From Albugo candida (taxonomy: Eukaryota > Oomycota > Peronosporomycetes > Albuginales > Albuginaceae), in the NCBI GenBank assembly GCA_905220665.1, contig CAJNAR010000176.1, positions 186,001 through 250,000 of the forward strand: a stretch of DNA of 64,000 nt, read 5' to 3'. Every line of letters begins with the position of its first letter. Position 1 is the stretch's first letter. Shown one piece after another: positions 6,961 to 63,600 of this stretch. Both the position numbers and the translations under genes were made by a program. The notes under the pieces were generated by a model that was given only the letters and a program-made list of their open reading frames with translations, was not told where the DNA came from and made no database searches.

Positions 6961-6969
6961 GCAGACAAG

Positions 6970-14485: not shown

Positions 14486-14588
14486 AATTTAGTTAGTTTG
14501 TGTAGAGTCGTTTGACACAATTTAGCCAAGTAGAAAAACCAGACGACTTGACAAGGTTAATAAACGCGACCTTTCCAGAACTTCTAGC

Positions 14589-20300: not shown

Positions 20301-20619
20301 GAGTTCGGTTGGTTGTGATCGTGAAACTTGGTTTCTTGAACACAACAAATGGAGTGTTGTGATAGGACGTGGTCGATAAAAAGATGACCATTTTTACGAA
20401 TTCTATGAACATTCACCGTTAGTGCTGAGATAATATTCCACGTTGAAGTAGTCGAGGGTGTCTTAGCATTTACGATGAAGTGGACTATGAATCAATTCTT
20501 TGTCACCAACTTTAATGATGAGGTGTAGTGTTGGTAATTCTTCCGGGAAAAAAGGAAGTATTGAGGAAGAGCTCGTCCATATCACCACAGATGGTTCCTT
20601 GTTATTTCCTTTTAAGGCA

Positions 20620-36608: not shown

Positions 36609-36775
36609 CAGAACTGCAGAATCCCTTTGAAGTCATAGGGGTTTTAATACGTCACACCTTCATGCGTTATCTCGAACGATCAGTCGCAGAACTGCAGAAT
36701 CCCTTTGAAGTCATAGGGGTTTTAATACGTCACACCTTCATGCGTTATCTCGAACGATCAGTCGCAGAACTGCAG
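36609..36775. repeat. Perfect 78-bp tandem repeat, 2.1 copies
   Basis: Units at 36609-36686 and 36687-36764 are identical, followed by a partial third starting cagaactgcag. No coding frame runs through it. Confidence 0.95.
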
Positions 36776-38180: not shown

Positions 38181-38699
38181 CGCAGCATTCTACCAACTCA
38201 CTCCGGGTATTTTTGTTGAATGTAGAAATTGACTTCGGACACCAACTTCATTGAAGATTTTTTTGTGGTCTCAACGTAGCTAGGCAATAGCGCAGCTGTT
38301 GGAAAGGGTTAGAAGAGTTGAAGGAGCAAGTGAATCTCGAAGAGCTTCTATGACAACGGAAGAGATGGCTACCAGATCTTGACAGATAGGTATAGGAATA
38401 ATTGCACGTTTGCTACAAAATTTAGGAGGAGCAGGAGAAAAATGAAGCTCGGTAAACATGCACAGAATGGCATAGAAGAGAATGAAAAATGGGTAAGGAC
38501 AGATAAAATACACAAAATCAATTTCTCCGTCAACAACGCACCCAACAACAACAACTGGGTGAGTCCAGTACCGGGATCAGACGATAGCAAGAATGAGCCG
38601 ACATCATCAGTTCACTCAAGGGCATCGTCGTAACGCGCAGCAATTTCGCCGCGCGTCGCAGATGTCATTACAGACGCGCCAGATCGTGGATGAAGCTGG
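38181..38699. other. No confident gene; may include Copia-2 leader
   Basis: A plus-strand frame (38379-38633) is rich in Lys, Asn and Ser without motif. It lies just before Copia-2 gag and could be leader or LTR sequence; no LTR pair was found. Confidence 0.35.
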
Positions 38700-42700: not shown

Positions 42701-42910
42701 ATCCATCAAGCAAATTGAAGACGAGGCATCATCGATCAAGGCTAAACACATTGATGTGTGGCTCAAGTTCGTGTGCGGCAACGCCAGACGGGGCATTGTG
42801 ATCGCGCAATAGATACGCTTGGCGAAGATGCTCGCATACTTGCTGACGAAAGCACTGGACCCAGCAAAGCTTGAAAGTTTGCTTGCACTCATGTGCTTGG
42901 AGTATTAGTT
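39785..42910 (+). pseudogene. Copia-2 pol polyprotein
   Basis: Protease block: VNDASMRHNAEDCDHEISMA then SYGKLEKKGCGLV (39,790-40,020). The integrase region, 40,070-41,100, is in many frames: an EIITS*ISSTTS zone, RMPRPSACNI, and late blocks matching 'IVVFGSTCAVYIDARNN' near 40,900 and 'VFLQNDNHVVITQHVMNIET' near 41,010. In RT near 41,930 the YVDD box reads YVCN (VYVCNLLATDTSADSIDHLF), so catalysis is lost. FLGMPMSLAKDSSYVLNQ and TPIGADCYEV-like sequence follow near 42,050-42,170. RNase H: MKAEFVATSETSRDLLGIHE (42,579) and IKQIEDEASSIKAKHIDVWL (42,700), ending with LLTKALDPAKLESLLAL. Confidence 0.8.
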
Positions 42911-45900
42911 CAAGGCCTTTGAGATGAACAAAAATGCTAGCGTGATATGTAAGTGGGAATGGGGATTATGCTGCGTCTGAGACAGCACACCCAACATTTG
43001 AAACAGTTTCTTTACAAGAAACTGATATCTTGCTGATCCTGACCACTATTTTACCATTACATGGACTGCGTGGTCTTGCAGTTAATGGCGAGGATATTCA
43101 CGTACAGACTGCAGCAGGGGCTTCCAAAAACTGATTAGGGGAGGGGGGGTCAGATCACTAATCGTGGTGAAAAAACATACGAAAGTTTTTTCGGATTGAG
43201 AAAATGTACGATCGAGTGGATTGGTCGTAAATGTTTGAGATTTGGTCAAAAAGAAACGTGGAACGTCTCACCCAGTGAACACATCCTCTTTACAAAAACA
43301 CGAATGTTTCGTTGTTGTTAATGGAACGCATTTACCCAAAATCACTTTTCTAATGGATTGAAACTAGCTGATCTGCCTACGCATTTCTCCAGCATGACGA
43401 TTGGGCTTTTGGAAAATTTGTTGCGAAGGAATGATCGACCTTGCTTAAGCATCTAGTGAAAGGATACAGGAAGGGGGGTTGTCAACTTGACATTATATCG
43501 TTTCTTCTCAGTAGAGTGGAGTAGCAGCTCGAGCTGTTCAGGAATATTGCGATGGTTCAAGTGCAAGTTGAATTGGTACAAGTGTTTTTGTCTTCACTAA
43601 ATTGACATCACGCATGTCCACCGTTGCGAAAATAAAAGCACTCGTACCCATCATTATTGGTAATTCCATTCAGCCATCCTCCTCGTTTGTGATATAATGA
43701 ATGGGGAGTAGTGATCGATCTTAGGGAGTTTTTCGTTAGTGGTTCCGTCGAGAAGAATTTTCTGTGAAAGAAGCTAGTGGCACAAACTATGGTTTTATCA
43801 GTTTATGACACTCATAACTCATTTCAACATTTAGCAACATTCACATCAACACTGTAAGTCGATGCTCAATCGAATTTGTTTCAAGTTTGAATTCTGAACG
43901 AGTTCAACACACAGTCAACCTTCTTTTCTCGCAGCGCAGCTAAAGAAACAACGCTTTCCCTTTTTACAACAATTTATACTTGATTCCAGTTCAGCTTCAT
44001 CCAGCAAATGTTCATACAGTAAAAGAGATCACATAATGCATATTACCCAATTATAGGCCATATCAAGCACTCTCTTTCCTCGCGATATCAGCACGTCGTC
44101 ATGCGACCATGGTTCGTTGGAATGTAGCGTCATCTTGGTGAAAGCAGACATAGTTCTGAGTGCACATGATGATTAGTAGATTTGACTGCTGGGGAAACCC
44201 GAACTCAAAATGGTAAGATCTAAAATGGTAGTGAGAACTGGATGAACCCGATAATTGGGTAGCATACTTGCGTGGAGACTATTAAAGAGCTTTCCAAGAA
44301 CTTCAAATATAGATCCGGAGTATAGTCGGAAATGAATACCGCTTTGCCGAAATTTTAATGCCAAACCGAACCGGTACGCCTGTTCTGATTTCCATCCGGA
44401 ACAGGGAAACCGTCACCCGGTTAAGCTCGCGAGTTCTGCGATGCGTCGATATGAAATCGGCGCAAAAAGGTCGATGTAGAAAACTCTCACGACTGTAGAA
44501 CTTCACTTAAACTAAATCGCAGTATGAAATTTGCAACTGATCCGATCCAGACCGTTCGTTCACAAAAAAGACACAGGAAGATCCTATCCGAAGCGCATGA
44601 GCGAATCGCTTCCGCCAATTACGCGCTGATTCGGGAACTATTCTCAGACATCGATAATGAGCAAAGGCGCTTCTTGATCGTTTTGTCTGCTTAAAATGGA
44701 GCTGAGGGCGACTTGAAGCCGTATCGGAGCATACAACATGATGCTGATAAATAGCTCATGTTATGATGAATCTTAGCCTGAAAGATCTCATCCGCTTTGG
44801 TGCTACCAAACACATTATGGTGAAGTGGAAAGGTACCATGAAGTGTTCTTCGAATGTAGCACGACCAATTCAACTTGGGAAGTACTAATTAATACTTGAT
44901 AAATCTTCTTGTCCGTTCGACCACGATCGCAAATTGAGTATGCACGTATTCCGTGACTTTACAAAAGTATTTAATCGATTAATTTTCAATTTTATTGTAT
45001 CGGTGCGTGGAAACCTTTTCGACTGATGCTGTACGATGGTTGGTTTTCATTAAGTCGCGCCTGCTATTCATTTTATTTGAGTCATCGGAATAGCAGACAT
45101 TTCCTTATACACCTACTGCTTCTACTATTTATGAGATGTACAGCGCATTCAGTTCTTACATCTGATGTTTCCAACGGAGTGCTATCATGCTTAGCAACCG
45201 ACCAATTGCGTCATATCAACACATATGACGCAGCCCTGGAATCCTTCTCCGCTTGGCTCAGTTTATCTAAGAGTCGACGAGGATCAAGATAACAAGTTGA
45301 TGCGGTAGCCTATCTTCTCAGTAATACTCATATTCTATCTGCTGAAGTGCGGTGTGAATAAATCTACACCCGTCTTGCATGTATTTCTATAAGTATTGGA
45401 GTCTAGGTACTTTTTCCAAGAAGTAATCTCCTAATTGTAGTACTGACGGAGGGTGTTTCGTCAAAATGTTACCTTAGTAGAGAAGGACCTCCTCGAGTGA
45501 GGATACAAAAGTCAAGTGAGAATACGAGCAAGTAATTCAACGACTACTCCCAATATAACGATAACGAAATAGGTGTTGCGGGGATCAGCACAAAACAATT
45601 ATTTTGAGATCGAAACCCGGTGGGTATTCACTCGAAAATCGACCTCGTACTGAGTCGCAGCGAGTGTTTCTGGATAGCGCTTGAATACATAGTGATGCGT
45701 CTAACACTGTCAACATGTCCTCTTATACCGATTACGTAATGATATAGAAGGGAAACAACAAAAATGACATGCAAATGAAATGTTTTTCTCCGACGTTTTA
45801 CCTCGCAAAATGACAAGAATCTACTTATGTATCGTTTCGGTCCGAATCCTATAATTGGGATCATGAGCCAGACCTGTGATATGGTTGGCGAACGTTCGCT

Positions 45901-45935
45901 GTCCCGTACTTTTATACTCCATGTTATAACGAACG
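42911..45935. other. Gene-poor 3-kb interval
   Basis: No recognisable transposon. Frames at 44303-44506 and 45628-45966 (both minus) lack motifs. Near 44,530-44,690 a plus frame reads RSQKRHRKILSEAHERIASA, with good composition but no identity. 45026-45292 is listed separately. Confidence 0.45.
45026..45292 (+). CDS. Small ORF with hydrophobic segment, unidentified
   Basis: 88 codons from ATG 45026, with a hydrophobic segment HFLIHLLLLLFMRC at about residues 27-40 followed by a polar tail. The hydrophobic stretch starts too far in for a typical signal peptide, so it could be a signal anchor. No homologue is recognised; may be chance. Confidence 0.2.
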   Translation: MLYDGWFSLSRACYSFYLSHRNSRHFLIHLLLLLFMRCTAHSVLTSDVSNGVLSCLATDQLRHINTYDAALESFSAWLSLSKSRRGSR

Positions 45936-47584
45936 GTGTTGTGTCCATTCGTGGAACCTTTATCATCAGATGAGAAGTTCATTCCAGGTACGACGCCGCG
46001 TACGTTCTCTGAGCAATCATTTTCAGCAGTACAAGTGCTGGGTCAGCGCATATTTTCTGCAAACTTGTGCATGGTCAACCACTGGCTTTTAAAGAAAACG
46101 TTGAATAGACACCAGCAGACACAAAGATATAGTCGTCGTCTTTTGGGCTCAGCAAACAATGATTTTTCTTCGGGGTGGGGTGATGGGTATAGCAAATTCG
46201 ACATGCAAAACCAACATGCCTTGGATACAATTTTTGCTCAGGATCAACTAAAAGCAGACAAAATTTCCAGGTTTCAAATGCCATTGCTCGATGTCATGGG
46301 TGTGGCATGTACAAACCAGTAATGTTCCCTTTGCTATGTTTTATTGTGACACGAATCAGAACATGATTACATTTGGGCACATGGGCAAATGAAGGTAATT
46401 TTTCAAGATAGAATCACTGGGCCGATGATCATTGTCACTGACAGAGAATTAGCATCGATGACTGCAATCTCACGGGTTCTACTTGAAGCGACGAATCTGC
46501 TTTGCATATGGCAAGTTAATAAGAATGTCCTGGCAAATGCTAAAAAGCACTTTCCGAAGGACGAATAATGGAAAGAATCTTTCACAAAGTGGCACGGATT
46601 GTACCGCTCTGCCACTAAACAGGAATTCGAAGAGAATTGGGTGCTCCTCAAAGATGCTATTAATGAGACTGGCTATGCGTATTAACAATCCACATGTGTT
46701 CCACACAAGGAGAACATCCTTGTCTGGACAAAAAAAAGCATTTTGGGCATGTAGCTACCTCTCGCGTTTAAGGCGGACATGGAACCTTGAAGAAAGGGAT
46801 TGTAGTTTCAACAGGGGTTTTGACAGCAGTTTATAGAAATAGGTTCTTGTAGCTCAACAGCAGCGCCAAGGAATACGTCAAAAAATTGCATACGATCGTT
46901 CACACATTATCGTCCCCCTTAGTTAGAGCTTCAGGACAACCGTGAATAGAAAGATTTCACATCATGCATTGAATGAAGTATGTAACACTAGTGTATGCAT
47001 ATAGTTGTGTACAGTACTAGGCAACATATGTAATGACCATATTTTTTTTCTGAAGGTCTTCAAGCAGTATCAAAAAGCACTATCGATGGAGAGCAATAAA
47101 AAATGCAATAGAACATTCACGAGCCCTAAAGTATTTCCTTGCTCTCATGCCATCAAAGAGCTTCAAAAGATGGGGCCAATCTTACATGAAGCTCATCTCC
47201 ATAAGCGCTGGTGGCTTAAAAACAAGTCTGTATATCCCACACTGTATCCTGCAATACCTCGCCAGGAAAAAACAAGCGTTTCGGACATTGTGAAAAAGTT
47301 GCAAGAGCGTTAGTCGGTCTTGCCTCCACACAGACAGCGACTTTTTGAGCAGGATCTCAATTGCCTTGCATCTATTCCAAGCCCTGGGGTAAATGATCCT
47401 GCCACAGTGGCCTCACGTGGACGGCCGAAAGGATCAACGAGTACCAAACGAGATCTGTCCGCATTTTAGTACATTTGAGAGGGAGCAGCAGGAACTGCCA
47501 AATCGAAGATGCGGGTCCTGCAAACAAGAAGGTAGCAACAGGCGCATATGCCCACAACCCAAAGTCAACAAAACAAATCTGTAA
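45936..47584 (+). pseudogene. MULE-4 transposase, 5'-truncated
   Basis: Starts within the catalytic domain (FQMPLLDVMGVACTNQ at 46,275, just after the expected first Asp). Continues HDYIWAHGQMKVIFQDRITG then MIIVTDRELASMTAISRVLL (second Asp) with the helical motif changed to LCIWQVNKNVLANAKKHFPK, and EFEENWVLLKDAI. The C-terminus has a SWIM-type PCSHAI (47,140), LHKRWWLKNKSVYPTLYPAI, PGVNDPATVASRGRPKGSTS, and a degenerate zinc knuckle RCGSCKQEGSNRRIC in which the His is replaced. It belongs to the FAR1-like MULE group but is distinct from MULE-1, -2 and -3. Stops and frameshifts throughout; the N-terminus is missing or unrecognisable. Confidence 0.8.
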
Positions 47585-47605
47585 TTCAATTTTTTTTTTT
47601 TTCAG

Positions 47606-47735
47606 CGGGTGTGGCGATAATGGTTCCCTAATCTAATTTCAATTTAGGGCTGTGATGATACCGGTTCCCATTCAGGTTGTGTGACGATACCGGTGTTCTC
47701 AGTTATGTTAGGGGTGTGGCTATACCGAATTCCTT
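47606..47735. repeat. Degenerate GTGTGGCGATACCGG-like tandem motif
   Basis: Four imperfect units spaced about 35-45 bp: gggtgtggcgataatggttc, gggctgtgatgataccggtt, ggttgtgtgacgataccggt and aggggtgtggctataccgaa. It lies between the end of MULE-4 and the palindrome; the last two units are also present, inverted, at the right arm's outer end (57,685-57,745). Confidence 0.6.
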
Positions 47736-49384
47736 GATATATCATACTTTATAATTAAAACCAATCTGGAAGAATATGGTTCGCGTAACTTCAATAGTAT
47801 CTTGTTAGACTTCCATAAACCTCCTTTATGTGCACAATTCTTTATAAATGAAAAAGAAAAGATTAAAAGATATCCGTGGACTGGTTCCTGAACGAACTTC
47901 TACATACATAAAATACGCTTTCATCAGCAACGAAGAATTGCGCATGGAACATTTCGACAGTGCAGAAAAGTCGGTATTTGTTTTTTTTTCTGTCAGACCG
48001 TGCCGATTACAGAAAGGATGCGAGTATTGAATAACATTACCCAAGTCATACAGTGTGATGCCATAAGATCTTTCGGGGTGACACCCTCACTTCTAAGATA
48101 ACTGTTTTCTAGTTGCATGTTACAGCGTTTCTCTTGTACGTTTTTTCCATGGAAACGCTACTCATGTGTCTTGCAACTGATGCTGTCGTTTCACACTTTC
48201 TGGGGTCTCTGAGAATACTTCCATGATTTTTTTTAACTATATGCCGTTTTCAAAATCCGAGTGCTTCGTATCACGACTTGACTATTTCTGTCGTTTGAGA
48301 CTCAGTGACATGCATCGAATTCATCTAAGCAATTTTCTTGAAAGATTTATCTTCAGCCGTGAATTGGTAGCAAGATCATTTTGTCGTTTAAGAGGGGAGC
48401 AATTTTCATAGTTTATGTCGTATTCCGCTTTTATAACTGATGTAAACTGCTGAGAAAAGGTAGTATTAAAGCATGCAGATGGAGGCACAAATAGGAATCA
48501 GCAAACTGCTTGAACTCCTTGCACTAATTTGTCCCTCTTTCCAGATTGGACTGTTTGGAAATCCTCTTTACTATCAAAAGAGTTAAATCTTCAAGTCGAC
48601 ATTCCCTTCGTGGTATTAGTCCGCTGACACACCTGAACTATATAATAGTCAAATAGCACCAATCGAGATTTTGAAGGAATCGGAAGTATGATGTCAAGGT
48701 TTGTAAACAAATCGTCCGCTTCAATAGCCTTAGCAGCGATGATTTTGTCCAAATAAAAGAATTCCATGAGATGGTCGACTCCAAAGCGTGCTTTGTGGAG
48801 GTATCACAAGAAACGCAGATCTAATGAGAGAATTGAACTCAATGTATTCCACAAACATCGCCTGCCCTTGAGACTTTCAAGAGAGCAATCAAGTCTTTGA
48901 GAAAGTTTCTTTGTTCTAAAGAGGATCGGAGTTAAACTCCACGTCTATATTCCTTACCCGGACACTCGAAAAGCACTTCTTGAACCTTGTTTCTAGATCT
49001 TCTCCAGCATATTTCAAAGCGCTTTGATTGGAAATGTCTTTGAATGGTTCCAATGTGCGTACTTGTTGTGTTATGTGCTTTGCAAGGAGTGCTAATATTG
49101 TCGAAGTAGACTGCTTTAGAAAACGGCGATTTCAATTGCTCCGGACGAAGCGTAGTGCTAATGCCTTGAACGCCATCCATAACTCAGCGACTGTCCTTGT
49201 TCAGTGTGGTCGTATATGGAGTAGCTCAGACTCATTATTTCGGTCACAATCAAAACCAGATGCTGTCGTGACTTCACCACGGCATCAGAATGCCAAGTGC
49301 GCGATAACATGCCATAATGGTCATTCATCAATCAGATCTGAGGTTGAACTGGTAATATTCAAAGGTAAGACGGAAATGAAGTTT

Positions 49385-49960
49385 TTATGCAATTAGTAAA
49401 TGTAGTGCGAGGGCTATTACAGAGTCTTGTTCAAAAGGTTTTGATGCACGGGTCAAAGCCCGCCAATATATGTAGCTACGTAGGTAAGGTTCGATTTCGG
49501 ATGTCAGGTCGCCAATGAAGGCTCTCATGGAGCCGGCAGTAGTTATCTGCACCGTGACTATATCGCACATGTAATAACGAGCTTTTCTTTTTTCCTTCGG
49601 ATTATCATTGGAAATAAATGCCACGTCTGGTACATCACCAAGGGTGTCGTTTAAACAAACATCACCAAAACGACTACAGATGACAGGTGGAACGCAATCA
49701 ATAACATCAATGCAAAGATTTGTTGCTTGAGCCTTAGCGATTCGGGATGATATATTGCATGCCGCAGTTATGTCGGTGGTTTTCACGGACTTCCCGAATT
49801 GTTTGTCTATATCGTGCTCTAAAAAAAAGCATTCATACATATTGGAATCATCAATTTTTCTCATGGAGACTGCCGTTATGTTTTCGAAGGAAGCTTGAAC
49901 AATTCTGACACAAAGTTCGATGCCAATTTCCATGATGTCGTGGTGCATGTAGAAAATCAT
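49385..49960 (-). pseudogene. Palindrome gene 1 (left arm): secreted-type cysteine protein, 5' end broken
   Basis: 191-codon frame from ATG 49960, with a TGA directly upstream. Contains CVRIVQASFENITAVS, DITAACNISS, and CIDVIDCVPPVICSRFGDVC (C-x5-C-x5-C-x6-C). It ends after RAFIGDLTSEIEPYLRSYIY and a short tail. It is clearly homologous to gene 2 (51340-51965): the CxRIVQxSFxNxTAVS and DITA...C-x5-C-x5-C blocks, and the DIV..QITTAG and SEI endings, line up. The ATG start gives no signal peptide. The lost N-terminus probably lies in other frames upstream (ISLDIFLFYSYV near 50,060). So it is a relic even here, although the body is open only in this arm. Confidence 0.65.
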
Positions 49961-50219
49961 TCAGGCAGCGATCCACCGACAGCATCAAATCTTTTTTTCG
50001 CATTTGTGAGTGATTGTGCACATAAGAGTAAAACAGAAAGATGTCGAGCGAGATACTATTGGTGATACTAGGAAGATACTCTTCCGAAGTGGTCTCTACT
50101 CTACAGATGCGTTGCAAGGGACAAGCGGCAGCAGAAGAAAATCAGCTTGCATTATGTCGAACCTTATTTGGAAAAAAAGTCAATACAATATACCGTTTGA
50201 ACTTACAGTGAACTACTAG

Positions 50220-51330
50220 GCTCCCTCGATACTTTTATCTGTTCATTATCTTGGCCATAGAAAAGTCCATATCGCTTGAATCACAGGCATGTTCGGTATC
50301 ACACCCATTGTAATTCGATTACGGGGCATTGTGCTATGTTTGACACAAAAGACCTGCTATAGCGTAGATTTTTTCTCAACAGATAGATAGAAGCTTCTTC
50401 TACAGTGTATTAAATCTCGCACGGTCCATATTTTATTGAGTTACAAATTAAGCTCATGCACACGACATCGCACTCTACAAATCGCAACCTCATCGACAAA
50501 GTGCGCATTCTTATTTAAAGCACCCGATGTTTATGGCTCACTCTCAGTTCAACACTCGCACCAGATACAGCCTCAGTTGAGGATGTCAATGTAATCCAAT
50601 AAGACTAACGGACTTCGTAGGCTGTAATAAGCTATGAGCTTTCATACAATATCATATGCATGAGAACACCCGAGCCAGTAAGTTAATAGATTATACAGCT
50701 TATAAGATCCTTTACTACCGCTATACCCAGCATGCAGTATGAAAGTACGTTTAAAGGTACAATGGCCACCAAATCGTTTCCAGAACAATATGAACTTGAT
50801 GAGGGGAAGAATCAAAGTCACCCCTTAGTTGTGAGCTGATCCGGCACCTTTCTAGAACACAGGCGTATGTCTCAATCGTAAGACTTCCTTCGAGTGTGCC
50901 GAATGTGCGCACTACCAGCTCTGTACCAGGTGTAGAGTTAGTGCCTACAATCCCAGACATATGTAGAATTCGATTGTATCCGTCTCGTCGCATAATAGCA
51001 GACGCAATTCAATGCGTAACGCTATCTCGCATTAGCTCTTTAGCAATTAGAACTGGGGTCGAACTGGGGACATTTGAAATGTTCAGAGGAAAGTGTACTC
51101 ATTCATGCGATTTCAGAAAGGGTGGGGCGGAGAACACTACCAAGTCCTTTTGGGACGGTTTTATGCACTGGATAGAACACGCGCGTATAGATGGAGTTCC
51201 GTCTTACATGGTGTCGCGTCGGATACTGTTAACATGGCCGCTTGAGTGAGCAAGTGATGAGAGAAAAGATAAGGAAAAAGAGACTCTCAAAAGGCACGTT
51301 CAAAATTCGAACGGTTACACGACACAAATT
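50220..51330. other. Unassigned interior of the arms (mirror 54077-55187)
   Basis: Opposed frames 50751-50993 (minus, ATG start, MRRDGYNRILHMSGIVGTNS...) and 50896-51249 (plus, GTG start) overlap antisense, and each has an exact mirror at 54414-54656 and 54158-54511. Neither has a signal peptide or known motif; at most one can be real and I cannot choose. The 47,740-49,380 part of the arm (mirror 56,026-57,667) likewise has only anonymous frames such as 48932-49180 (minus). Confidence 0.4.
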
Positions 51331-51339
51331 ACCAGTAAG

Positions 51340-51965
51340 CTACTTTTTTACTGGTAAGGTTCCGATTTCGGAACCCGGATCCATGTACAAACCTGATATG
51401 GTGACAGCAGTAGTTATCTCTTTCGTGAGTTTATTGCGCATGAAGAAATGCTGCGGCATTTTTTTTTCGGATCATCTCCGATGTTGATCCCCATTCCGGG
51501 TAGGACACCAACCTTGTTATTTGTGCATTTGCCAACTTTTTCGTTTCCTTTCCGTACACATATGAAAGGTGTAGCGCAATCAGTAATATCGTTGCAATTT
51601 TGGTTCGCTCCCGCGAAGTTAAATTTGTCTTCAATGTTAAAGAACGCCGTGATGTCACTGTCGAGGGAGCTATAAATTACCTCGTCTTTATTTTAAGTTG
51701 TCGAAAACGAGCATTTTTTTTGGCTACCAGTAGGACCAATTGATGTTATGGATACTGCCGTATAATTGTTAAAGGAAGTCTGGACGATTCTAAGACAAGG
51801 GTCGATATAATCGTCTACCATCATCAAAAGATCAAAGTCTTCCTCCTTTAGGTTCATTTTCGAGTTCATTTGTAAGCCAAGACCACGATGGCTTCCTGTT
51901 GTCGTTTTTGTGTCCGAAAACACAAAGATAGAAAGCGTGAAGTGAAATATGAACTTGAGGGCCAT
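51340..51965 (-). pseudogene. Palindrome gene 2 (left arm): secreted protein, in-frame stop plus frameshift
   Basis: ATG 51965 gives a signal peptide (MALKFIFHFTLSIFVFSDTK). The mature part has CLRIVQTSFNNYTAVS, then TAA at 51693-51695. Same-frame homology resumes immediately (DITAFFNIEDKFNFAGANQN, CNDITDCATPFIC). The A/T run at 51459-51467 is one base shorter than in the right arm, which shifts the last ~45 codons out of frame. Two lesions, so non-functional as read. Confidence 0.75.
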
Positions 51966-52496
51966 TATATAATGTTGTTGCTTTGAAGGAAATTGAAATG
52001 TGAATCACGTTGTTTGCGGCTCGTTATAAGCTGCGTCAGATGTTACTCTAAGTTTGATCTAGAAAAAGTAAAGGGAGTATGGATCTTGCACGTCATGGGA
52101 TGTAACAAATAGAGAGAGAGTGGCGAGAAGGGTGTGAGTGTCTTTGGCTTGGAGTGACTATCCCTATACGTTGAATTTGTAAGACTTTGATAGAGTAGTC
52201 GCACATGTGATATTATATAGCCGAGTCGGAGTGTCACATTCCTGAGATGTACAGAAATAGTAGTAAAGAAAGGTGACACTACTATATATCTATACAATTG
52301 TATCGCATACCTTTACACTTTGTTTCCTAACGTTGTATGTAATATTGTACTTCTATCGGAGTGTTACATGCTTAGGATGTAAAGAATAGCGGTAATGAAA
52401 GACGACTATACTATATGTAGATTTAGGAAGCCGTTAGTATTCACTCACCCTCTTGATAGTATTCAATCTCCCCCTGATTCACTGGGTAAAATTCAC

Positions 52497-52909
52497 TCAA
52501 ATTGACGTTAGACGGAGATCAATACTCACTCACTTGTAACAACTATTACCACTCAACTCACTACCGCTCAATCCACTCGAAAGTAAAAAAATGAAGATTC
52601 TCAGCTTTCTAGATCATCAGCCCATCTCTTACATCGCGATTGCTCACAAAGAAAAAGTTAAGGTTTTTAATTATGTATTGATAATAGCTTTTTTATAATT
52701 TCTAGAAAGTTGTGCTGATAGTTTAAGTCCTCAATATAAGCTACTTTTGGTAATATGCATATTTAAGCAAATTTCACGGTGTATGTGTTGAGTGTAAAGG
52801 ATTGATAAGTTGAGTTCAATTTTATAATGTGTTTGCTAGGTGTAGTTGAAAGTGAGTCACGGCACGTGATGGGTGAGGGGTATGGTTGAGTGATGAGTAA
52901 TCATTACTG
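52497..52909. other. 413-bp single-copy spacer of the palindrome
   Basis: AT-rich, flanked by ACTCACTCA-type words on the left and their imperfect complements on the right, so a weaker inverted similarity continues a little way in. No gene, no recognisable transposon end. Confidence 0.8.
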
Positions 52910-53440
52910 GTGAATTTTACCCAGTGAATCAGGGGGAGATTGAATACTATCAAGAGGGTGAGTGAATACTAACGGCTTCCTAAATCTACATATAGTATAG
53001 TCGTCTTTCATTACCGCTATTCTTTACATCCTAAGCATGTAACACTCCGATAGAAGTACAATATTACATACAACGTTAGGAAACAAAGTGTAAAGGTATG
53101 CGATATAATTGTATAGATATATAGTAGTGTCACCTTTCTTTACTACTATTTCTGTACATCTCAGGAATGTGACACTCCGACTCGGCTATATAATATCACA
53201 TGTGCGACTACTCTATCAAAGTCTTACAAATTCAACGTATAGGGATAGTCACTCCAAGCCAAAGACACTCACACCCTTCTCGCCACTCTCTCTCTATTTG
53301 TTACATCCCATGACGTGCAAGATCCATACTCCCTTTACTTTTTCTAGATCAAACTTAGAGTAACATCTGACGCAGCTTATAACGAGCCGCAAACAACGTG
53401 ATTCACATTTCAATTTCCTTCAAAGCAACAACATTATATA

Positions 53441-54067
53441 ATGGCCCTCAAGTTCATATTTCACTTCACGCTTTCTATCTTTGTGTTTTCGGACACAAAA
53501 ACGACAACAGGAAGCCATCGTGGTCTTGGCTTACAAATGAACTCGAAAATGAACCTAAAGGAGGAAGACTTTGATCTTTTGATGATGGTAGACGATTATA
53601 TCGACCCTTGTCTTAGAATCGTCCAGACTTCCTTTAACAATTATACGGCAGTATCCATAACATCAATTGGTCCTACTGGTAGCCAAAAAAAATGCTCGTT
53701 TTCGACAACTTAAAATAAAGACGAGGTAATTTATAGCTCCCTCGACAGTGACATCACGGCGTTCTTTAACATTGAAGACAAATTTAACTTCGCGGGAGCG
53801 AACCAAAATTGCAACGATATTACTGATTGCGCTACACCTTTCATATGTGTACGGAAAGGAAACGAAAAAGTTGGCAAATGCACAAATAACAAGGTTGGTG
53901 TCCTACCCGGAATGGGGATCAACATCGGAGATGATCCGAAAAAAAAAATGCCGCAGCATTTCTTCATGCGCAATAAACTCACGAAAGAGATAACTACTGC
54001 TGTCACCATATCAGGTTTGTACATGGATCCGGGTTCCGAAATCGGAACCTTACCAGTAAAAAAATAG
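53441..54067 (+). pseudogene. Palindrome gene 2 (right arm): secreted protein with one in-frame stop
   Basis: 209-codon frame from ATG 53441 to TAG 54065-54067, interrupted only by TAA 53711-53713. Signal peptide at residues 1-18 or so, with a strongly hydrophobic FIFHFTLSIFVF core. Blocks: CLRIVQTSFNNYTAVS with an N-glycosylation site, then after the stop DITAFFNIEDKF, C-x5-C-x5-C-x10-C (CNDITDCATPFIC...C), and EITTAVTISGLYMDPGSEIG aligning with gene 1's QITTAG...SEI. The 10-A run at 53939-53948 keeps the C-terminus in the frame shared with gene 1. A TATA-like acattatata lies directly before the ATG. No enzyme motif; role as a secreted host-interaction protein is inferred. Confidence 0.75.
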
Positions 54068-55446
54068 CTTACTGGTAATTTGTGTCGTGTAACCGTTCGA
54101 ATTTTGAACGTGCCTTTTGAGAGTCTCTTTTTCCTTATCTTTTCTCTCATCACTTGCTCACTCAAGCGGCCATGTTAACAGTATCCGACGCGACACCATG
54201 TAAGACGGAACTCCATCTATACGCGCGTGTTCTATCCAGTGCATAAAACCGTCCCAAAAGGACTTGGTAGTGTTCTCCGCCCCACCCTTTCTGAAATCGC
54301 ATGAATGAGTACACTTTCCTCTGAACATTTCAAATGTCCCCAGTTCGACCCCAGTTCTAATTGCTAAAGAGCTAATGCGAGATAGCGTTACGCATTGAAT
54401 TGCGTCTGCTATTATGCGACGAGACGGATACAATCGAATTCTACATATGTCTGGGATTGTAGGCACTAACTCTACACCTGGTACAGAGCTGGTAGTGCGC
54501 ACATTCGGCACACTCGAAGGAAGTCTTACGATTGAGACATACGCCTGTGTTCTAGAAAGGTGCCGGATCAGCTCACAACTAAGGGGTGACTTTGATTCTT
54601 CCCCTCATCAAGTTCATATTGTTCTGGAAACGATTTGGTGGCCATTGTACCTTTAAACGTACTTTCATACTGCATGCTGGGTATAGCGGTAGTAAAGGAT
54701 CTTATAAGCTGTATAATCTATTAACTTACTGGCTCGGGTGTTCTCATGCATATGATATTGTATGAAAGCTCATAGCTTATTACAGCCTACGAAGTCCGTT
54801 AGTCTTATTGGATTACATTGACATCCTCAACTGAGGCTGTATCTGGTGCGAGTGTTGAACTGAGAGTGAGCCATAAACATCGGGTGCTTTAAATAAGAAT
54901 GCGCACTTTGTCGATGAGGTTGCGATTTGTAGAGTGCGATGTCGTGTGCATGAGCTTAATTTGTAACTCAATAAAATATGGACCGTGCGAGATTTAATAC
55001 ACTGTAGAAGAAGCTTCTATCTATCTGTTGAGAAAAAATCTACGCTATAGCAGGTCTTTTGTGTCAAACATAGCACAATGCCCCGTAATCGAATTACAAT
55101 GGGTGTGATACCGAACATGCCTGTGATTCAAGCGATATGGACTTTTCTATGGCCAAGATAATGAACAGATAAAAGTATCGAGGGAGCCTAGTAGTTCACT
55201 GTAAGTTCAAACGGTATATTGTATTGACTTTTTTTCCAAACAAGGTTCGACATAATGCAAGCTGATTTTCTTCTGCTGCCGCTTGTCCCTTGCAACGCAT
55301 CTGTAGAGTAGAGACCACTTCGGAAGAGAATCTTCCTAGTATCACCAATAGTATCTCGCTCGACATCTTTCTGTTTTACTCTTATGTGCACAATCACTCA
55401 CAAATGCGAAAAAAAGATTTGATGCTGTCGGTGGATCGCTGCCTGA

Positions 55447-56021
55447 ATGATTTTCTACATGCACCACGACATCATAGAAATTGGCATCGAACTTTGTGTC
55501 AGAATTGTTCAAGCTTCCTTCGAAAACATAACGGCAGTCTCCATGAGAAAAATTGATGATTCCAATATGTATGAATGCTTTTTTTAGAGCACGATATAGA
55601 CAAACAATTCGGGAAGTCCGTGAAAACCACCGACATAACTGCGGCATGCAATATATCATCCCGAATCGCTAAGGCTCAAGCAACAAATCTTTGCATTGAT
55701 GTTATTGATTGCGTTCCACCTGTCATCTGTAGTCGTTTTGGTGATGTTTGTTTAAACGACACCCTTGGTGATGTACCAGACGTGGCATTTATTTCCAATG
55801 ATAATCCGAAGGAAAAAAGAAAAGCTCGTTATTACATGTGCGATATAGTCACGGTGCAGATAACTACTGCCGGCTCCATGAGAGCCTTCATTGGCGACCT
55901 GACATCCGAAATCGAACCTTACCTACGTAGCTACATATATTGGCGGGCTTTGACCCGTGCATCAAAACCTTTTGAACAAGACTCTGTAATAGCCCTCGCA
56001 CTACATTTACTAATTGCATAA
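55447..56021 (+). pseudogene. Palindrome gene 1 (right arm), frameshifted
   Basis: Mirror copy of 49385-49960. The T run at 55579-55585 has seven T's against eight in the left arm, so the frame from ATG 55447 runs into TAG right after ECFF. The remainder is open from about 55,575 to 56,021. Other differences from the left copy upstream are Glu-Asn for Glu-Tyr and Arg for Gly in the shadow frame near 55,320-55,470. Confidence 0.7.
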
Positions 56022-57747
56022 AAACTTCATTTCCGTCTTACCTTTGAATATTACCAGTTCAACCTCAGATCTGATTGATGAATGACCATTATGGCATGTT
56101 ATCGCGCACTTGGCATTCTGATGCCGTGGTGAAGTCACGACAGCATCTGGTTTTGATTGTGACCGAAATAATGAGTCTGAGCTACTCCATATACGACCAC
56201 ACTGAACAAGGACAGTCGCTGAGTTATGGATGGCGTTCAAGGCATTAGCACTACGCTTCGTCCGGAGCAATTGAAATCGCCGTTTTCTAAAGCAGTCTAC
56301 TTCGACAATATTAGCACTCCTTGCAAAGCACATAACACAACAAGTACGCACATTGGAACCATTCAAAGACATTTCCAATCAAAGCGCTTTGAAATATGCT
56401 GGAGAAGATCTAGAAACAAGGTTCAAGAAGTGCTTTTCGAGTGTCCGGGTAAGGAATATAGACGTGGAGTTTAACTCCGATCCTCTTTAGAACAAAGAAA
56501 CTTTCTCAAAGACTTGATTGCTCTCTTGAAAGTCTCAAGGGCAGGCGATGTTTGTGGAATACATTGAGTTCAATTCTCTCATTAGATCTGCGTTTCTTGT
56601 GATACCTCCACAAAGCACGCTTTGGAGTCGACCATCTCATGGAATTCTTTTATTTGGACAAAATCATCGCTGCTAAGGCTATTGAAGCGGACGATTTGTT
56701 TACAAACCTTGACATCATACTTCCGATTCCTTCAAAATCTCGATTGGTGCTATTTGACTATTATATAGTTCAGGTGTGTCAGCGGACTAATACCACGAAG
56801 GGAATGTCGACTTGAAGATTTAACTCTTTTGATAGTAAAGAGGATTTCCAAACAGTCCAATCTGGAAAGAGGGACAAATTAGTGCAAGGAGTTCAAGCAG
56901 TTTGCTGATTCCTATTTGTGCCTCCATCTGCATGCTTTAATACTACCTTTTCTCAGCAGTTTACATCAGTTATAAAAGCGGAATACGACATAAACTATGA
57001 AAATTGCTCCCCTCTTAAACGACAAAATGATCTTGCTACCAATTCACGGCTGAAGATAAATCTTTCAAGAAAATTGCTTAGATGAATTCGATGCATGTCA
57101 CTGAGTCTCAAACGACAGAAATAGTCAAGTCGTGATACGAAGCACTCGGATTTTGAAAACGGCATATAGTTAAAAAAAAATCATGGAAGTATTCTCAGAG
57201 ACCCCAGAAAGTGTGAAACGACAGCATCAGTTGCAAGACACATGAGTAGCGTTTCCATGGAAAAAACGTACAAGAGAAACGCTGTAACATGCAACTAGAA
57301 AACAGTTATCTTAGAAGTGAGGGTGTCACCCCGAAAGATCTTATGGCATCACACTGTATGACTTGGGTAATGTTATTCAATACTCGCATCCTTTCTGTAA
57401 TCGGCACGGTCTGACAGAAAAAAAAACAAATACCGACTTTTCTGCACTGTCGAAATGTTCCATGCGCAATTCTTCGTTGCTGATGAAAGCGTATTTTATG
57501 TATGTAGAAGTTCGTTCAGGAACCAGTCCACGGATATCTTTTAATCTTTTCTTTTTCATTTATAAAGAATTGTGCACATAAAGGAGGCTTACGGAAGTCT
57601 AACAAGATACTATTGATGTTACGCGAACCATATTCTTCCAGATTGGTTTTGATTATAAAGTATGATTTATCAAGGAATTCGGTATAGCCACACCCCTAAC
57701 ATAACTGAGAACACCGGTATCGTCACACACCCTGAATGGAAACCGGG

Positions 57748-59600
57748 CCTCCGATATTGAGGCTATCATGAAATTGTATGCTGATAGGGAGCATCCAGAG
57801 TGGTCGGTCTTGGCTGTAAACCTGGAAGCAGCAAGACGTTTCCAAATCCGAAAGCCACCTTTCCAATGGTTTTGGAGACGGGACAGTCGTTAACCTGTAC
57901 TCCAAATGGGAGAATTCGATTCTCCTTGATGCGAGACCACGGTAATCCGGTATTTGAAAGCTTACTGGAGAGCCGTTCATTCACTCAGGTGTCCAAAATG
58001 CCAGGAGGCAACATCAGAGTGATGGTCAGCACGGCGGATGCCTGTCAACAGTTGGCGTGTTAGACAGTGGCTATCCTTGGAGACAAGTATTTTTTCAAAG
58101 AATTTGATACTCTGGAAACGAAATAGTATCTCGATGTCTTCGGTGTTGGCGTGGAGGAAGAACGAAACAGCATTCTCCGCACTCTTCACAAACTCGGGTG
58201 GCAAGTGGTGTATGACACCTTTCGCGAGACTGTTACCACTAAAGAAGTGGTGATGTCGACTTGAAGAGTCTTTTCTGGTTCTTTGACATTCCCCCAGCAG
58301 TAGGTTCGAGTTGGGCAACTGCTAGAGAAAATCTCTTACGATAAACAGCTCTACCCAATCAGGGGGGGGGTGCTCCTATTCCAATGGAATGAACACGTTT
58401 CGGTCAACGTGGCTCTTATTGCTTGATTTTGGGTGCTACATCAGGCACTGGAGCAAAGCAACAACCAAAGCAAAAACAATAAACAACGAAGCCAAAATCA
58501 ACATCCAACCCAGATTCCAAACAAACAACAACCACGAAAACAAAAACAGCAACGAAGAAAACGACCGAGCAAAAAGCACTCGTGGTGGCACCACGAACGG
58601 TATTGAAGCCAGTCCCCTTCAAGAATTGGAGACGAGAAAACCTGTACGGAAGGTATCCGATTAAATCTCGTTGGAGCTCAATTCTCCTCTCACTATAACA
58701 CCACCAGGAGCGCCATCCTTATTGCAGATGTCTCCTCCCATACTCCAAGTGGCCAGTCAATCGTACTCAAAACCACGGGGGGAGCGGGATGGGGTAATCC
58801 ATGTATTGGCATGGACTAGTGGAAACGTAATCGAGTGGAGCCGTTCAAACAAATGGTCTCCCAAGTACCACATCTTGCGCTTCCGACGTTAGCGACTAGT
58901 GATAATTTTTCTGTGCTTGCAACTATGCTGGTGGAGAGGGAAGAAATAAAAGCGATTGCCAATCCGGAGAATGCAAATCATCCCGCTGAGAACACGGATG
59001 CCAAAAGAGGTGACCTCCTCGAAACAGGGACCACACTTCTAACAAACACGGCATACAACTTTTGAGAAAACGGAGCGACCAACCCAAATTGGTGAAATAA
59101 AGCAGCTCATGGAAATCGATTCGAAAAATTCCCTTCACTTGCTCCGTCCGTACAAGCTGGTTCTAGCCGATGCTTGCATCTCTCACATAAGAATGTTTGC
59201 CCAGTTTTGCGACAAACGCGGACAGATTATCCGAGCTGCACTTGATCATCCGATCACGATGAATGATGTGCTCCTCGCGTGTATGGAGTCGAATGATAAA
59301 GCTCTGGAAATGGCGCATTTACTCATTATAAACCGCGTTTTTGAAGCCCACAATCTCGGCGGAGATGTTACGTCTCCGACGGGACGTTGGTGGAAAAATT
59401 CACTCGAAGCGATCTGTTTTGTTCGAGAAAGTAATGTCGTGGTTGACGTCAGTGCCGGACACAGTCCTCGGTTTGACTCGAGAAACCAAAGCGCTCGGGT
59501 TTTTGAAACTCTTACTTTTAAGTATTGCTCCTACATTCTACACAAACGATTAATGGCTACGCTATCTCACCGATGGACGATTGATTTGGATTCCGGTTAA
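57748..59600 (+). pseudogene. LINE-B copy 2, ORF1
   Basis: Starts mid-protein with SDIEAIMKLYADREHPEWSV and PPFQWFWRRDS, then MPGGNIRVMVSTADACQQLA, YLDVFGVGVEEERNSILRTL, a Gln/Asn/Lys-rich linker (58,440-58,570), a Pro-rich PPGAPSLLQMSPP and, at 59109-59600, a 163-codon frame with VLLACMESNDKALEMAHLLI and INRVFEAHNLGGDV. Several stops separate the pieces. RNA-binding function is inferred from position only. Confidence 0.7.
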
Positions 59601-60060
59601 TCATTGTCTTTTACTTCCAACTAATATGATCATATCCTTCTCCCGCTCCGAAGTGGGCATTAAGTGTTGGTCTCAATGGTTTGGAGTTAATGGCGAGAAG
59701 TTCTCCCTGCTGACATCGCTGAGCTTCCAGTCAGCCTCAGCTTTTTCCCAGAGAAACATACAACCTTTCACCTCTCACAACAAGATGGTGAACGAGGTTG
59801 ATTGCTGCTCCACTCCAGCGTGAATGCTAAAGGCTGCTCGGTTATTTTAACGTGGAACAATATCTCAGCACTCACGGTGAATGTTAATGGAATTCTCACG
59901 CATGGTCATCTTTTTATCGACCACGTTCTATCACAACACTTCATTTGTTGTGTTCAAGAAACCTAGTTTCACGTTCACAACCAACCGAACTCATTTCAGT
60001 TTTTATGATGATCAAAACAGTGCTTTTCTTCAACTGACTTAAAACCGCAGTAGCGGCGTC

Positions 60061-60600
60061 ATGACAATCCTTCGTTCGCACTTTCCCAGTTCTACAAAAG
60101 CTGAAGAACTCACCGAACGAAGCATTCAAAACCGCTATTTGGTTATATGCACCAGTCAAGGCCAAGGAACGAGTGGTTTTTATGAGTTATTGCTCGCCAA
60201 CACTTTTGGAGCGACCGCAACACATATCGTCTTTGATGATTTTAATACACCACTCGATCCAGCTTTCGCTGCTTCGACTGGAACAATCTGGCACGAACCA
60301 TGTCTATTAGCGTGCGTGGAATTGGCGTGCACAGTTGTGTGTGGTAGATGCCTGGAGAATACAACATCTGACTGTAAAAGTATTTACAGTACCATTACCG
60401 CGAAAGAATCGACTAGATTATATCTGCATGTCGGAAGAACTATTCAATATGGTATACAAAACCTCCGAGTAGTTTCGTCCGCGACATGCGGGAGAACATA
60501 TGGCACAAAAAGTAACTTTTACAAATCCAACTCAGTCTCCGGGACAAGGATATTGGAAATTTTCATTACGAATATTTGAATATCCTAAAGCTGTAGAAGC
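60061..60600 (+). pseudogene. LINE-B copy 2, AP-endonuclease domain
   Basis: TILRSHFPSSTKAEELTERS opens the domain and FDDFNTPLDPAFAASTGTIW holds the DFN motif; ESTRLYLHVGRTIQYG is the frameshifted equivalent of RLDYICMSEELF in copy 1. More decayed than copy 1. Next comes the YWKFSLRIFEYPKAVEAIRL linker to RT. Confidence 0.75.
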
Positions 60601-61169
60601 AATCAGATTGGAAGCGAATTTGGTGCTCGAACATTTGCGGACAACTTCGAATCCCGACAAAATGTGGGAAAGTTGGAAGAGGAAAATCAAGAAACAGCTT
60701 CAAAGCATTGAACATAAGGTTGCAAAAGATAGCCGACGTGATTTTGAGTCTAGTCAGCGTATTTTGGAAGTCACAGCAGCTCGATATCGCATTCACGACA
60801 CCAATGAGTCACGGTACTTTTACGAATCGAGTTTCCAACATTTCAGAATCTCGGTCGAAATACAACCAAGATGAAAACTTCGACCACTACGTGAAGCATA
60901 TGGAGAACTATTCCAAGCATTTTTTCCGCCCTCCAGATTGTTCTTGTCGTCGCGTGCCGATCGAAAATGCTACAAAAGTGTGGCACCGTGACATCGAGCA
61001 CGAGGGAAATTATTAACGATTTTAGAGATCATAGGGATGGTATCTTGGGATTCTCTATAGCTTCGAGATCGACTCAGATGATCCATGTGAAAGAAAAGAA
61101 AAAAAGCTACTTGATTCAATTCAAGTTTCCCTTGCATCCGAAGAGCAAGACCGTCTCTCAACACGCTTA

Positions 61170-62660
61170 AGTACGACCGAGTTGGGAGAAGCGAACAAGC
61201 ACATGCGGAGTAGTTCTTTTTAGGTATGGATGGGCTACCAGCTGCATTCTGTCATCTTTCTCCGGAAACGTATGGCGAGTATCTAAACATTGTGTTCGAA
61301 TATCAGCTGGAAAGAGGTATCTTACTTCGATCATAACGTCACTCGGCAATAACATTATTGTACGAAAATGGATCACGAGGTGATCCTGGCAACTATCGAC
61401 CGATCGCACTGCTTTACGTCGATTTGAAAGTGCTTTCAAAGGTTTTGGGGAATCTATTTCAACCGTTTTTTCCAAAATGGATCCATCAAGATCAAAAAGC
61501 ATTTGTGCGTGGAAGGTCGATGCGTCACCATATTCGACATCTCACTGACATCCTATACTTGGTCACTCATCGTGGGGAGGTAGCATATGCGACGTTTTTT
61601 GACTTCGAGGAAGCTGATGATTGAGTCAATTAGACGTACATGTTTCGCGTTTTTGGAATAAATGGGCGCTGGGGAAAGTTTCCTCGACTGTGTTCGTTTC
61701 TTGTACAGTAACACGAAGGCGCAGTGGATGATCAATGTAAATGTTATACCGTCCATTACACCACAAACGTGGAGTAAAAATGGCGATCCTCTCTCAGCAT
61801 AACTTTTTCTGACGACGATGGAACCTTTGGGAAATTTACTTCGACAAAATGAACGCGGCATCTGGATGAATGGCACGACTGTCGCAACGGGCTTTCTTCT
61901 CGCGGACGATTCGACATTGCTTTCAGATACACCAATTGGTGTTTTGACGCAACTCGAACTCGTCCAAGTCTATTGCGATGGATCGAGTGCGAAACTCAAC
62001 TTGAGCAAATCATCCTTGCTCTCATTGAATCGGACCATGCCTTGTGAACGTATTATCAATGTGACCATAACGGGTCGTGAGGATTCGGTCACGTATTTGA
62101 GGATTCCGTTCCACCGAACACCAACTCATCCGATGGTTATTTCAACTCTCCACAAGCGTTTTTACGATGGGTTTGGTGTATGGTTTCGCGTGCACGAACT
62201 GTCCGTGGTCGGCTAATGGTTGCGTAGACGATGATTTCATCATGTCTGTGGTATTACAAGATGCACGTGAACATAAAAGTAGAGAAAATTGGACAGCGGC
62301 AATCAATGTTAAATCGATTTGCGCTTGGTCGGAAACACAAAAAAGATTCAAAACTCGTCCACCTACTCAGCAAAGAATGTTTATATCTTCGCCGACAAGA
62401 TGGTCGACTTAGTGGGACGACTAAAGTTGCAACGTATTTAATTCCTCCAGCAGTTTGCATCCGATGCGTCGACCATTATTCCTGCAAATTGGACAACTGG
62501 TTAAACGAATTATTACAACTAATCCAACCTTCCTTTGGACCACACAAGCTGATGGATATATTCACGATCGCACCACATGGACATGGAAAAATGATTCAAT
62601 GGGAGAGGACATCGTCTTGGTGGAAACACGCATTTAAAATGTGGCATCAGATGGATTAGA
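61170..62660 (+). pseudogene. LINE-B copy 2, reverse transcriptase
   Basis: Blocks: GSRGDPGNYRPIALLYVDLK, WIHQDQKAFVRGRSMRHHIR and EVAYATFFDFEEADD (61,358-61,624, normally FxKAYD), a TPQTWSKNGDPLSA-like block near 61,760, then EPLGNLLRQ, VATGFLLADDSTLLS with an intact ADD box (61,880) and LVQVYCDGSSAKLNLSKSSL. Stops at 61,622 and elsewhere plus frame changes make it inactive. Confidence 0.85.
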
Positions 62661-63179
62661 GCATTAGAATATCCGATTTGAATGTTTCACAACGCCGTCA
62701 GTATTACATGGAACAACCGATGTGGTTTCACTGCGACCAAGAATTACATTACGAAGTTGCTACTCGTACTCCAAGTACGTAATACGTTTGATCCAATCTT
62801 GGCATGGTGGCCGAACCACATCGGACGTTTTGAGAATCGTTTGCTACGCTTTTCGAGGTTCGTAGTCTTCAAGACTTTTTTTGAGACAGCGACACATGGC
62901 CAACGAAGGAAGCTTTAGTCGCCAACGATTACAACGACGAAGAGCTGATCACGTCGGATATGGCTGGAGAAAAGTTGCTGATTCGACTTTACAATGAAGT
63001 CACTCAGATAGTACAGCGTATATACGCCACAATTCGTCTCATCATTGGATTCAGCCAAGCAGAAGTGGTCGATTTTTTTTATGTTGGAGCACAAGCAAGG
63101 AGATAAAGTATTATTTTCTATCTATTCCACGCTCTCAACTCTCACGAATCGTCTGGAAACCTCCCGAACCAACCAAGAG

Positions 63180-63600
63180 TCATCCGATGTCGACACATTG
63201 GTCACCGCGGGAGAGATCGGCCACACTGGATTTAGAGCGGGTTCGAACTTTTATGGCTACATCACGGCATCTTCGGAAACGTGTACTACCAATTTTTGAA
63301 GATTTAGAGTTTCGTCTAGCCTTTCGGATGTTGCCAGTTCGATCTCGTTTCTGGTTCTTAAAGGATATTCAGCCCGACATTATATTGCGCACGCAGCCTC
63401 CATGTGGGGCAGTTTAATCCGATCAACATCTCTTTGTAGAGTGCAATCACACGGTACCATTATGGAGGGAGTTACTCCCTAGTTGGGATCAGTTTTTCTC
63501 CTCTTGGACGCATATTGTTTGTGAAGTCGGACCAGCACTACGGTCGGATTGGAAAGAATATCAACACATTATATCAGATTTATGGCTTGCATAGCAAGCG
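63180..63600 (+). pseudogene. LINE-B copy 2, zf-RVT-like C-terminal domain
   Basis: RSRFWFLKDIQPDIILRTQP and DQHLFVECNHTVPLWRELLP match the zinc-binding domain found after plant and oomycete LINE RTs (C...H-x4-C pattern). It follows an unrecognised 62,660-63,180 stretch and precedes a stop-rich 3' tail to about 63,970. Confidence 0.6.

What the first reader, a model, noticed from the sequence alone, without database searches (positions are those of the whole stretch)
47660..57747. Near-perfect 4.84-kb inverted repeat with a 413-bp spacer
The two arms mirror each other around position 52,703 with only a few substitutions and three one-base indels, while everything else repeated in the window is strongly diverged. 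The arms therefore either arose very recently, are kept alike by gene conversion, or come from a fold-back assembly or library artefact. The arms carry secreted-protein relics, so the inversion doubled an effector-like locus. The outer ~200 bp is more diverged than the interior, which fits conversion that fades towards the ends.
Basis: seen in the sequence. Interest (0 to 1): 0.8.

Follow-up and report, generated by a model that had tools for sequence, protein, structure and literature searches.

The report
Fold-back palindrome seeded by small transposon
A 4.8-kb piece of a white-rust genome was copied backwards next to itself, apparently because a small hairpin-forming transposon let a DNA end fold back and prime its own copy; it is a clear example of a known kind of DNA accident and doubles only decayed secreted-protein genes.

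Summary
The inverted repeat is there: arms 47661-52496 and 52910-57746, 12 substitutions and 3 one-base indels. The genome is Albugo candida or a close relative. (1) The "413-bp spacer" is the inside of a 557-bp MITE-like element (52425-52981), whose own 72-bp terminal inverted repeats (TIRs) form the innermost arm ends. (2) Left arm and left flank are colinear with an 81-89% paralogue 170 kb away, so the left arm is original and the right arm the copy. (3) The right TIR carries the left-TIR base at its innermost position (52910; p=5e-7 over 24 left and 16 right TIRs). Copying therefore began at or inside the inner TIR edge. (4) The copy ends at 57746, fused without shared bases to the interior of a LINE. 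This is the signature of fold-back priming at inverted repeats with a large loop, as known from yeast and human inverted duplications. An artefact is unlikely, but no reads were available. Gene conversion is not excluded, nor is it needed. The duplicated genes are relics. New member of a known kind.

The parts
47661..52496 (+). Left arm, the original copy
   Evidence: Self-BLAST, alignment; colinear, together with the left flank, with the paralogue on C174
52910..57746 (-). Right arm, inverted copy of the left arm
   Evidence: TIR direction test
52497..52909 (.). Spacer = interior of the MITE-like element; the hairpin loop in the model
   Evidence: Homologous through its length to other copies at about 70-77%
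52425..52981 (+). MITE-like element at the centre of the palindrome; superfamily and target-site duplication not determined
   Evidence: Dispersed copies, several ending at the same places, e.g. L012 and L020
52425..52496 (+). Left TIR of the element (72 bp), template of the right TIR
52910..52981 (-). Right TIR, 72/72 identical to the left TIR, with left-type innermost base
   Evidence: TIR pairs 82-90% in the 6 of 11 other copies where a pair was reported
46153..47730 (.). Dispersed 1.6-kb repeat with a ~124-bp inverted-repeat end (47607-47730); the outer breakpoint 47661 lies inside that end
57747..63323 (+). LINE (non-LTR retrotransposon), 5'-truncated exactly at the end of the right arm; right-hand extent approximate
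   Evidence: 82-85% to a C164 copy; relative with long ORF1 and an ORF2 with an endonuclease domain, PF03372; no shared base at the joint
42118..52327 (+). Segmental duplication, 81-89% identical in direct orientation to C174:398541-408732
51343..51965 (-). Relic 1 of a secreted-protein gene, left arm
   Evidence: tblastn with the 208-aa paralogue ORF and P0003; ORF cut to 90 aa
53441..54064 (+). Relic 1, right arm
49493..49921 (-). Relic 2, diverged member of the same family (about 34% to P0003), left arm
55471..55913 (+). Relic 2, right arm

Best explanation
This is a real, fairly recent fold-back inverted duplication with an adjacent deletion. The original locus read left flank - arm - MITE-like element - unknown sequence - LINE. 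A break or exposed single strand to the right of, or inside, the element let the strand fold back so that its right TIR paired with its left TIR around a 413-nt loop. The 3' end, trimmed to the inner edge of the TIR (or corrected towards the left TIR), primed synthesis that rewrote the right TIR and copied 4.84 kb of the left side in inverted orientation. Copying, or the resulting longer palindrome, ended inside the terminal repeat of a second transposable element (47661 on the template), and that end was joined without shared bases to the interior of a LINE, losing what lay between. Shown by sequence: the palindrome, the element at its centre, the left-to-right direction, the copy start at or inside the inner TIR edge, the breakpoint places, the right joint. 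Inferred: the single-stranded fold-back intermediate, the deletion, the recent date, one event rather than several. No gene function is gained as far as the sequence shows.
For: MITE-like element at the exact centre. Innermost TIR base: C in 22 of 24 left TIRs, T in 14 of 16 right TIRs (a 17th had a gap); the window has the left-type base in both (p=5.3e-7; 72 columns were looked at). The two window TIRs are 72/72 identical, against 82-90% in the 6 of 11 other copies where a pair was reported, and share a G at TIR column 61 seen in 1 of 40 other TIRs. In 11 other copies with flank, no reported inverted repeat extends outward from both element ends. Left arm and left flank are colinear with the paralogue; the right flank is not. 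Substitutions: 6 left-derived, 5 right-derived, 1 undecided. The LINE is 77-92% identical to the other copies listed, while the arms are 99.7%, which suggests that it is older. Precedent: large-loop fold-back inversions in yeast (PMC7467729, passages); inverted repeats in ssDNA tolerate wide spacing and up to ~25% divergence (PMC10164571, abstract); Pol delta fill-in from the fold-back (PMC10622511, abstract and Discussion part 1).
Against: No reads, no second strain and no allele were available. The cluster of 5 left-derived changes in 80 bp (simulated p 2e-4 for any such cluster) is not explained by the simple model. The lost right-hand sequence was not found, so the deletion is inferred. 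Only one strongly diagnostic TIR position exists; a second (column 50, p=0.016) would not survive correction for 72 columns, and the 41 TIRs read are not all independent (two pairs look near-identical). The first, smaller TIR set (11 left, 10 right) had 4 consensus differences, of which the window followed the left at 3 and the right at 1. One other copy (L019) matches about 40 bp outside the presumed element ends, so the element's ends may differ between subfamilies, and no target-site duplication was recognised. LINE divergence within a family does not by itself date this insertion.
Confidence: 0.73

Rival explanations
1. Old palindrome kept alike by arm-to-arm gene conversion, the outer ~160 bp escaping it.
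For: Outer 160 bp 4.4% diverged against 0.11% inside; the heterogeneity is significant; the LINE at the right joint is diverged from its relatives.
Against: No sign of fading at the inner end; 5 of the 7 outer changes are on one arm and within 80 bp, which looks like a local event; derived changes overall split 6:5, as after a simple recent copy. None of this excludes conversion.
Confidence: 0.15
2. Assembly or library artefact: fold-back chimera or mis-join.
For: Inverted copies are a known chimera type (general knowledge); the arms are near-identical; no reads could be checked.
Against: The loop is the interior of a dispersed element; both flanks are distinct within a 496-kb contig; the right arm has the paralogue's base at 6 sites where the left arm changed, which a same-molecule fold-back cannot give; no third near-identical copy was found to cause a mis-join (40 of 76 candidates scored); a right-arm-specific reading frame is held on a public contig of 4,933 bp (P0001; source not shown, weak).
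Confidence: 0.07
3. Hairpin-RNA locus: transcription through the palindrome makes long dsRNA whose small RNAs silence the intact relatives of the relics. (It concerns use, so it does not compete with the origin above.)
For: 4.8-kb near-perfect stem; 18 exact 21-mers shared with the 208-aa ORF of the paralogue; Piwi-domain hits (3) and one frame with two RNase III domains in this genome (no other Dicer domain tested).
Against: Only 311 of 4,816 arm 21-mers match the 15-kb paralogue stretch at all; no expression or small-RNA data; any recent palindrome would look like this.
Confidence: 0.05

Closest known systems
Fold-back inversions at inverted repeats in yeast (PMC7467729, PMC10622511, PMC10164571)
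   Same: Inverted duplication centred on a pre-existing short inverted repeat; loop retained; copied side identifiable; second end joined elsewhere.
   Different: Interstitial, 4.84-kb arms in a natural oomycete genome; the seed is a MITE-like element; the outer joint shows no shared bases, whereas most second joints in those papers use repeats. The yeast products described there pass through dicentric chromosomes or capture a telomere.
Human inverted duplications associated with deletion, ODIRA-derived in one model (PMC10766186)
   Same: Inverted copy with loss of neighbouring sequence (inferred here), one joint at an inverted repeat, one with little or no homology.
   Different: No triplicated segment here; the authors found no human case in their limited survey with unambiguously intact palindromic arms, this one is intact around a 413-bp loop.
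Fold-back (FB/TU-type) transposons (recalled)
   Same: Long inverted arms around a middle.
   Different: The arms are a genomic segment, not a repeated element: two near-identical copies found in the genome.

Membership tests
Fold-back inverted duplication | Centre is a short inverted repeat that existed before the duplication | tested here: met
   TIRs of a dispersed MITE-like element
Fold-back inverted duplication | One arm in its ancestral place, the other a copy | tested here: met
   Paralogue colinearity and innermost TIR base
Fold-back inverted duplication | Second end joined by repeat homology or end joining | tested here: met
   Joined to LINE interior; no base shared with the 5 LINE copies (of 6 searched) that showed the site
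Fold-back inverted duplication | Single-stranded hairpin intermediate | not testable with these tools
   Needs an experiment
ODIRA inverted triplication | Three copies with the middle one inverted | tested here: not met
   Two near-identical copies found in the genome (40 of 76 candidates scored); later loss of a third copy not excluded
Fold-back transposon | Arms repeated as a unit at many loci | tested here: not met
   Of 47 matches, besides the two arms: one paralogue in two pieces (82-87%), one 74% fragment, 37 short matches at the arm ends, 5 short internal ones
CCG effector class of A. candida | CX2CX5G motif | tested here: not met
   No match in the two left-arm relic ORFs tested, the paralogue ORF, or P0001-P0003

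The most novel reading that the evidence does not exclude
MITEs seed palindromes of decayed secreted-protein loci in Albugo, and the resulting long hairpin transcripts feed RNA silencing of the intact relatives.
Probability: 0.04. Interest if true: 0.7.

Novelty: new member of a known kind. Interest (0 to 1): 0.3.

Why it matters
It is an unusually legible natural fossil of fold-back copying: the seed repeat, the copy direction, the start point and the second joint can all be read. It lies in a lineage (oomycetes) where the listings of searches showed me no such case (11 of 11, 12 of 122, 1 of 1 and 12 of 18 papers listed; titles and starts of abstracts seen). It shows how dispersed MITEs could expand secreted-protein neighbourhoods. 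Here only decayed genes were doubled, so a consequence for the host plant is not indicated.

Tried and rejected
I first took 57747 as the terminus of a transposable element because nearly all long hits began there. That was a query effect: LINE relatives continue further 5', so 57747 is an internal truncation point.

I looked for the continuation of the right arm beyond the LINE (which would mean that the LINE had inserted into the arm): 46100-47760 has no match in 57747-81999, and none near it among the scored genome hits (40 of 58 candidates scored). I looked for the ancestral right-hand flank: C174:186001-267999 has no match to the paralogue's downstream side, 408733-432999. The same call shows other matches: an inverted 63-70% match of positions 69421-71400 (beyond the window) to 394700-396830, and two short ones at 6668-7122 and 38297-38555; I did not follow these. 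An 85-aa ORF spanning the right joint was searched in the protein database: no candidate. A viral-contig scan for P0001 found no relative. Pfam gave nothing above cut-off for the relic ORFs, the paralogue ORF and the other ORFs tested; one sub-threshold match (PF22321, Zona_CL2, 23.2 bits against a cut-off of 26) fell on ORF 49385-49960 and I drew nothing from it.

The outer breakpoint lying inside a TIR of another element may be chance; I draw nothing from it.

Full report
Setting. The window is bases 186001-250000 of a 496-kb contig (C174) in a 38.9-Mb, 196-contig genome. The organism is Albugo candida or a close relative: the 207-residue query from the paralogue locus matches a protein named Albugo candida at 95% identity over 75% of the query. 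Which isolate is not shown. A long-read assembly of isolate Ac2V is mentioned in PMC10087428 (passages seen); the paper describing it is not held.

Observation. The arms are 47661-52496 and 52910-57746, 99.69% identical, with 12 substitutions and 3 one-base indels; the indels lie in or beside homopolymer runs. The 2-kb flanks share only a chance-level 20-base match. In the whole genome (40 of 76 candidates scored, 47 matches) the arm has two near-identical copies, one paralogue at 82-87% in two pieces and one 74% fragment. Of the other 42 matches, 37 are short ones at the arm ends, because both ends lie in dispersed repeats, and 5 are short internal ones.

The centre is a MITE-like element. 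A 607-bp query around the spacer finds dispersed copies (40 of 48 candidates scored), and several of them end at 52425 and 52980-52981, for example L012 and L020. So a 557-bp element with 72-bp TIRs sits at the centre. I recognised no target-site duplication and did not assign a superfamily; one copy (L019) matches about 40 bp further out. Eleven other copies were read with flank. A TIR pair was reported in 6 of them, at 82-90% identity and 45-72 aligned columns, and no reported inverted repeat extends outward from both element ends; three (L016-L018) hold other inverted repeats that are not centred on the element. In the window the TIRs are 72 of 72 identical, and the identity continues outward for another 4.76 kb.

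Direction. Window 42118-52327 is colinear with C174:398541-408732 at 81-89%. This covers the left flank and the left arm together, so the left arm is in its ancestral place. Independently, the innermost TIR base separates left and right TIRs across the family: C in 22 of 24 left TIRs, T in 14 of 16 right TIRs (a 17th had a gap), p=5.3e-7, the best of 72 columns. These 41 TIRs are the ones I chose from the list, and two pairs among them look near-identical. The window's right TIR has the left-type base, so it was rewritten from the left TIR starting at or inside its inner edge. Both window TIRs also share a G at TIR column 61 seen in 1 of 40 other TIRs, which suggests that the left TIR had already diverged when it was copied. 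The first, smaller test (11 left, 10 right) had 4 consensus differences, 3 left-type and 1 right-type in the window.

The right joint. At 57747 the sequence enters a LINE in + orientation, inside its ORF1. The relative L036 has a long ORF1, without a Pfam match, and a second frame with an endonuclease/exonuclease/phosphatase domain (PF03372, 35 bits, cut-off 24.5); its reverse transcriptase is judged by eye from the partial frame. The window's LINE is 77-92% identical to the 40 or so matches listed. Six LINE loci were searched for the joint, five showed the site, and in none does the base at the joint agree with the arm; the bases lost from this diverged copy itself are unknown. The left end of the template, 47661, lies inside the ~124-bp inverted-repeat end of another dispersed element.

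Age and the outer cluster. With the paralogue as outgroup, 6 substitutions are on the left arm, 5 on the right and 1 is undecided, as expected for a recent copy; the local alignment to the paralogue is poor at one of the right-arm sites. Seven of 12 lie in the outer 160 bp; 5 of these are left-arm changes within 80 bp. Inside, the arms differ by 5 substitutions in 4,676 bp (0.11%). The cluster could be a local mutation or conversion event on the left arm, a difference between haplotypes, or the unconverted rim of an older palindrome. The data do not decide among these.

Artefact? A missed adaptor would not leave a 413-bp loop that is the interior of a transposable element (general knowledge of the platforms). 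A same-molecule fold-back could not give the right arm the paralogue's bases at 6 sites where the left arm is derived. The database also holds a contig of 4,933 bp that encodes the right-arm form of one ORF (P0001; identical to window 55575-56021). That is close to the arm length and could be a collapsed repeat from a short-read assembly, but its source is not shown, so it is weak support.

Genes. Each arm holds two relics of one small secreted-protein family. The paralogue locus keeps a 208-aa open frame, and a relative with a 172-aa open frame exists in another data set (P0003). Secretion is judged by eye from the hydrophobic N-terminus. The ORFs tested lack the CX2CX5G motif of the CCG class. 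The early stop of relic 1 is shared by both arms, so the gene was probably broken before the duplication, or conversion has since made the arms alike.

Comparison with what is known. Fold-back inversions in yeast arise from single-stranded hairpins; in strains with working MRE11 and SAE2 the loops are larger, with a median of 36 nt and up to thousands (PMC7467729, outline and passages). Inverted repeats in ssDNA tolerate wide spacing and up to about 25% divergence (PMC10164571, abstract). Pol delta fills in from the fold-back, and second joints mostly use repeats (PMC10622511, abstract and Discussion part 1); the second joint here does not. Human inverted duplications with deletion can show one repeat-based and one non-homologous joint (PMC10766186, parts of Results). 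The present case fits these in its main features. It is not, as it stands, a triplication, and not a repeated fold-back transposon. Library searches listed no such case in Albugo or another oomycete (listings only, 12 of 122 and 12 of 18 papers shown for 55 and 57; the one paper of one search holds the term in its reference list).

Verdict. Well explained, very probably real, and a new member of a known kind; interest 0.3.

Noticed in passing
42118-52327: 10-kb segmental duplication, 81-89% identical, direct orientation, about 170 kb from its partner on the same contig (C174:398541-408732).
   Followed up: partly
36609-36775: 89-bp direct repeat, 100% identical, copies overlapping by a few bases.
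   Followed up: no
11602-11682 and 14589-14669: 81-bp inverted pair, 98.8% identical.
   Followed up: no
28139-28858: 239-aa ORF (minus strand) with a CX2CX5G match, a possible member of the CCG class; no Pfam match.
   Followed up: no
18004-20484: A second, inverted LINE copy of the same family as the one at 57747.
   Followed up: no
49385-49960: Relic-2 ORF has a sub-threshold Pfam match to a zonadhesin cohesin-like domain (PF22321, E 8e-5, 23.2 of 26 bits).
   Followed up: no
13349-14485: 378-aa ORF holding undetermined residues (the window has 3 N in 14001-16000); looks OTU-protease-like by eye, which Pfam did not support.
   Followed up: partly
G000:C174:255421-257400 (positions 69421-71400 counted from the window start): Weak inverted match (63-70%) to C174:394700-396830, just upstream of the paralogous segment.
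   Followed up: no
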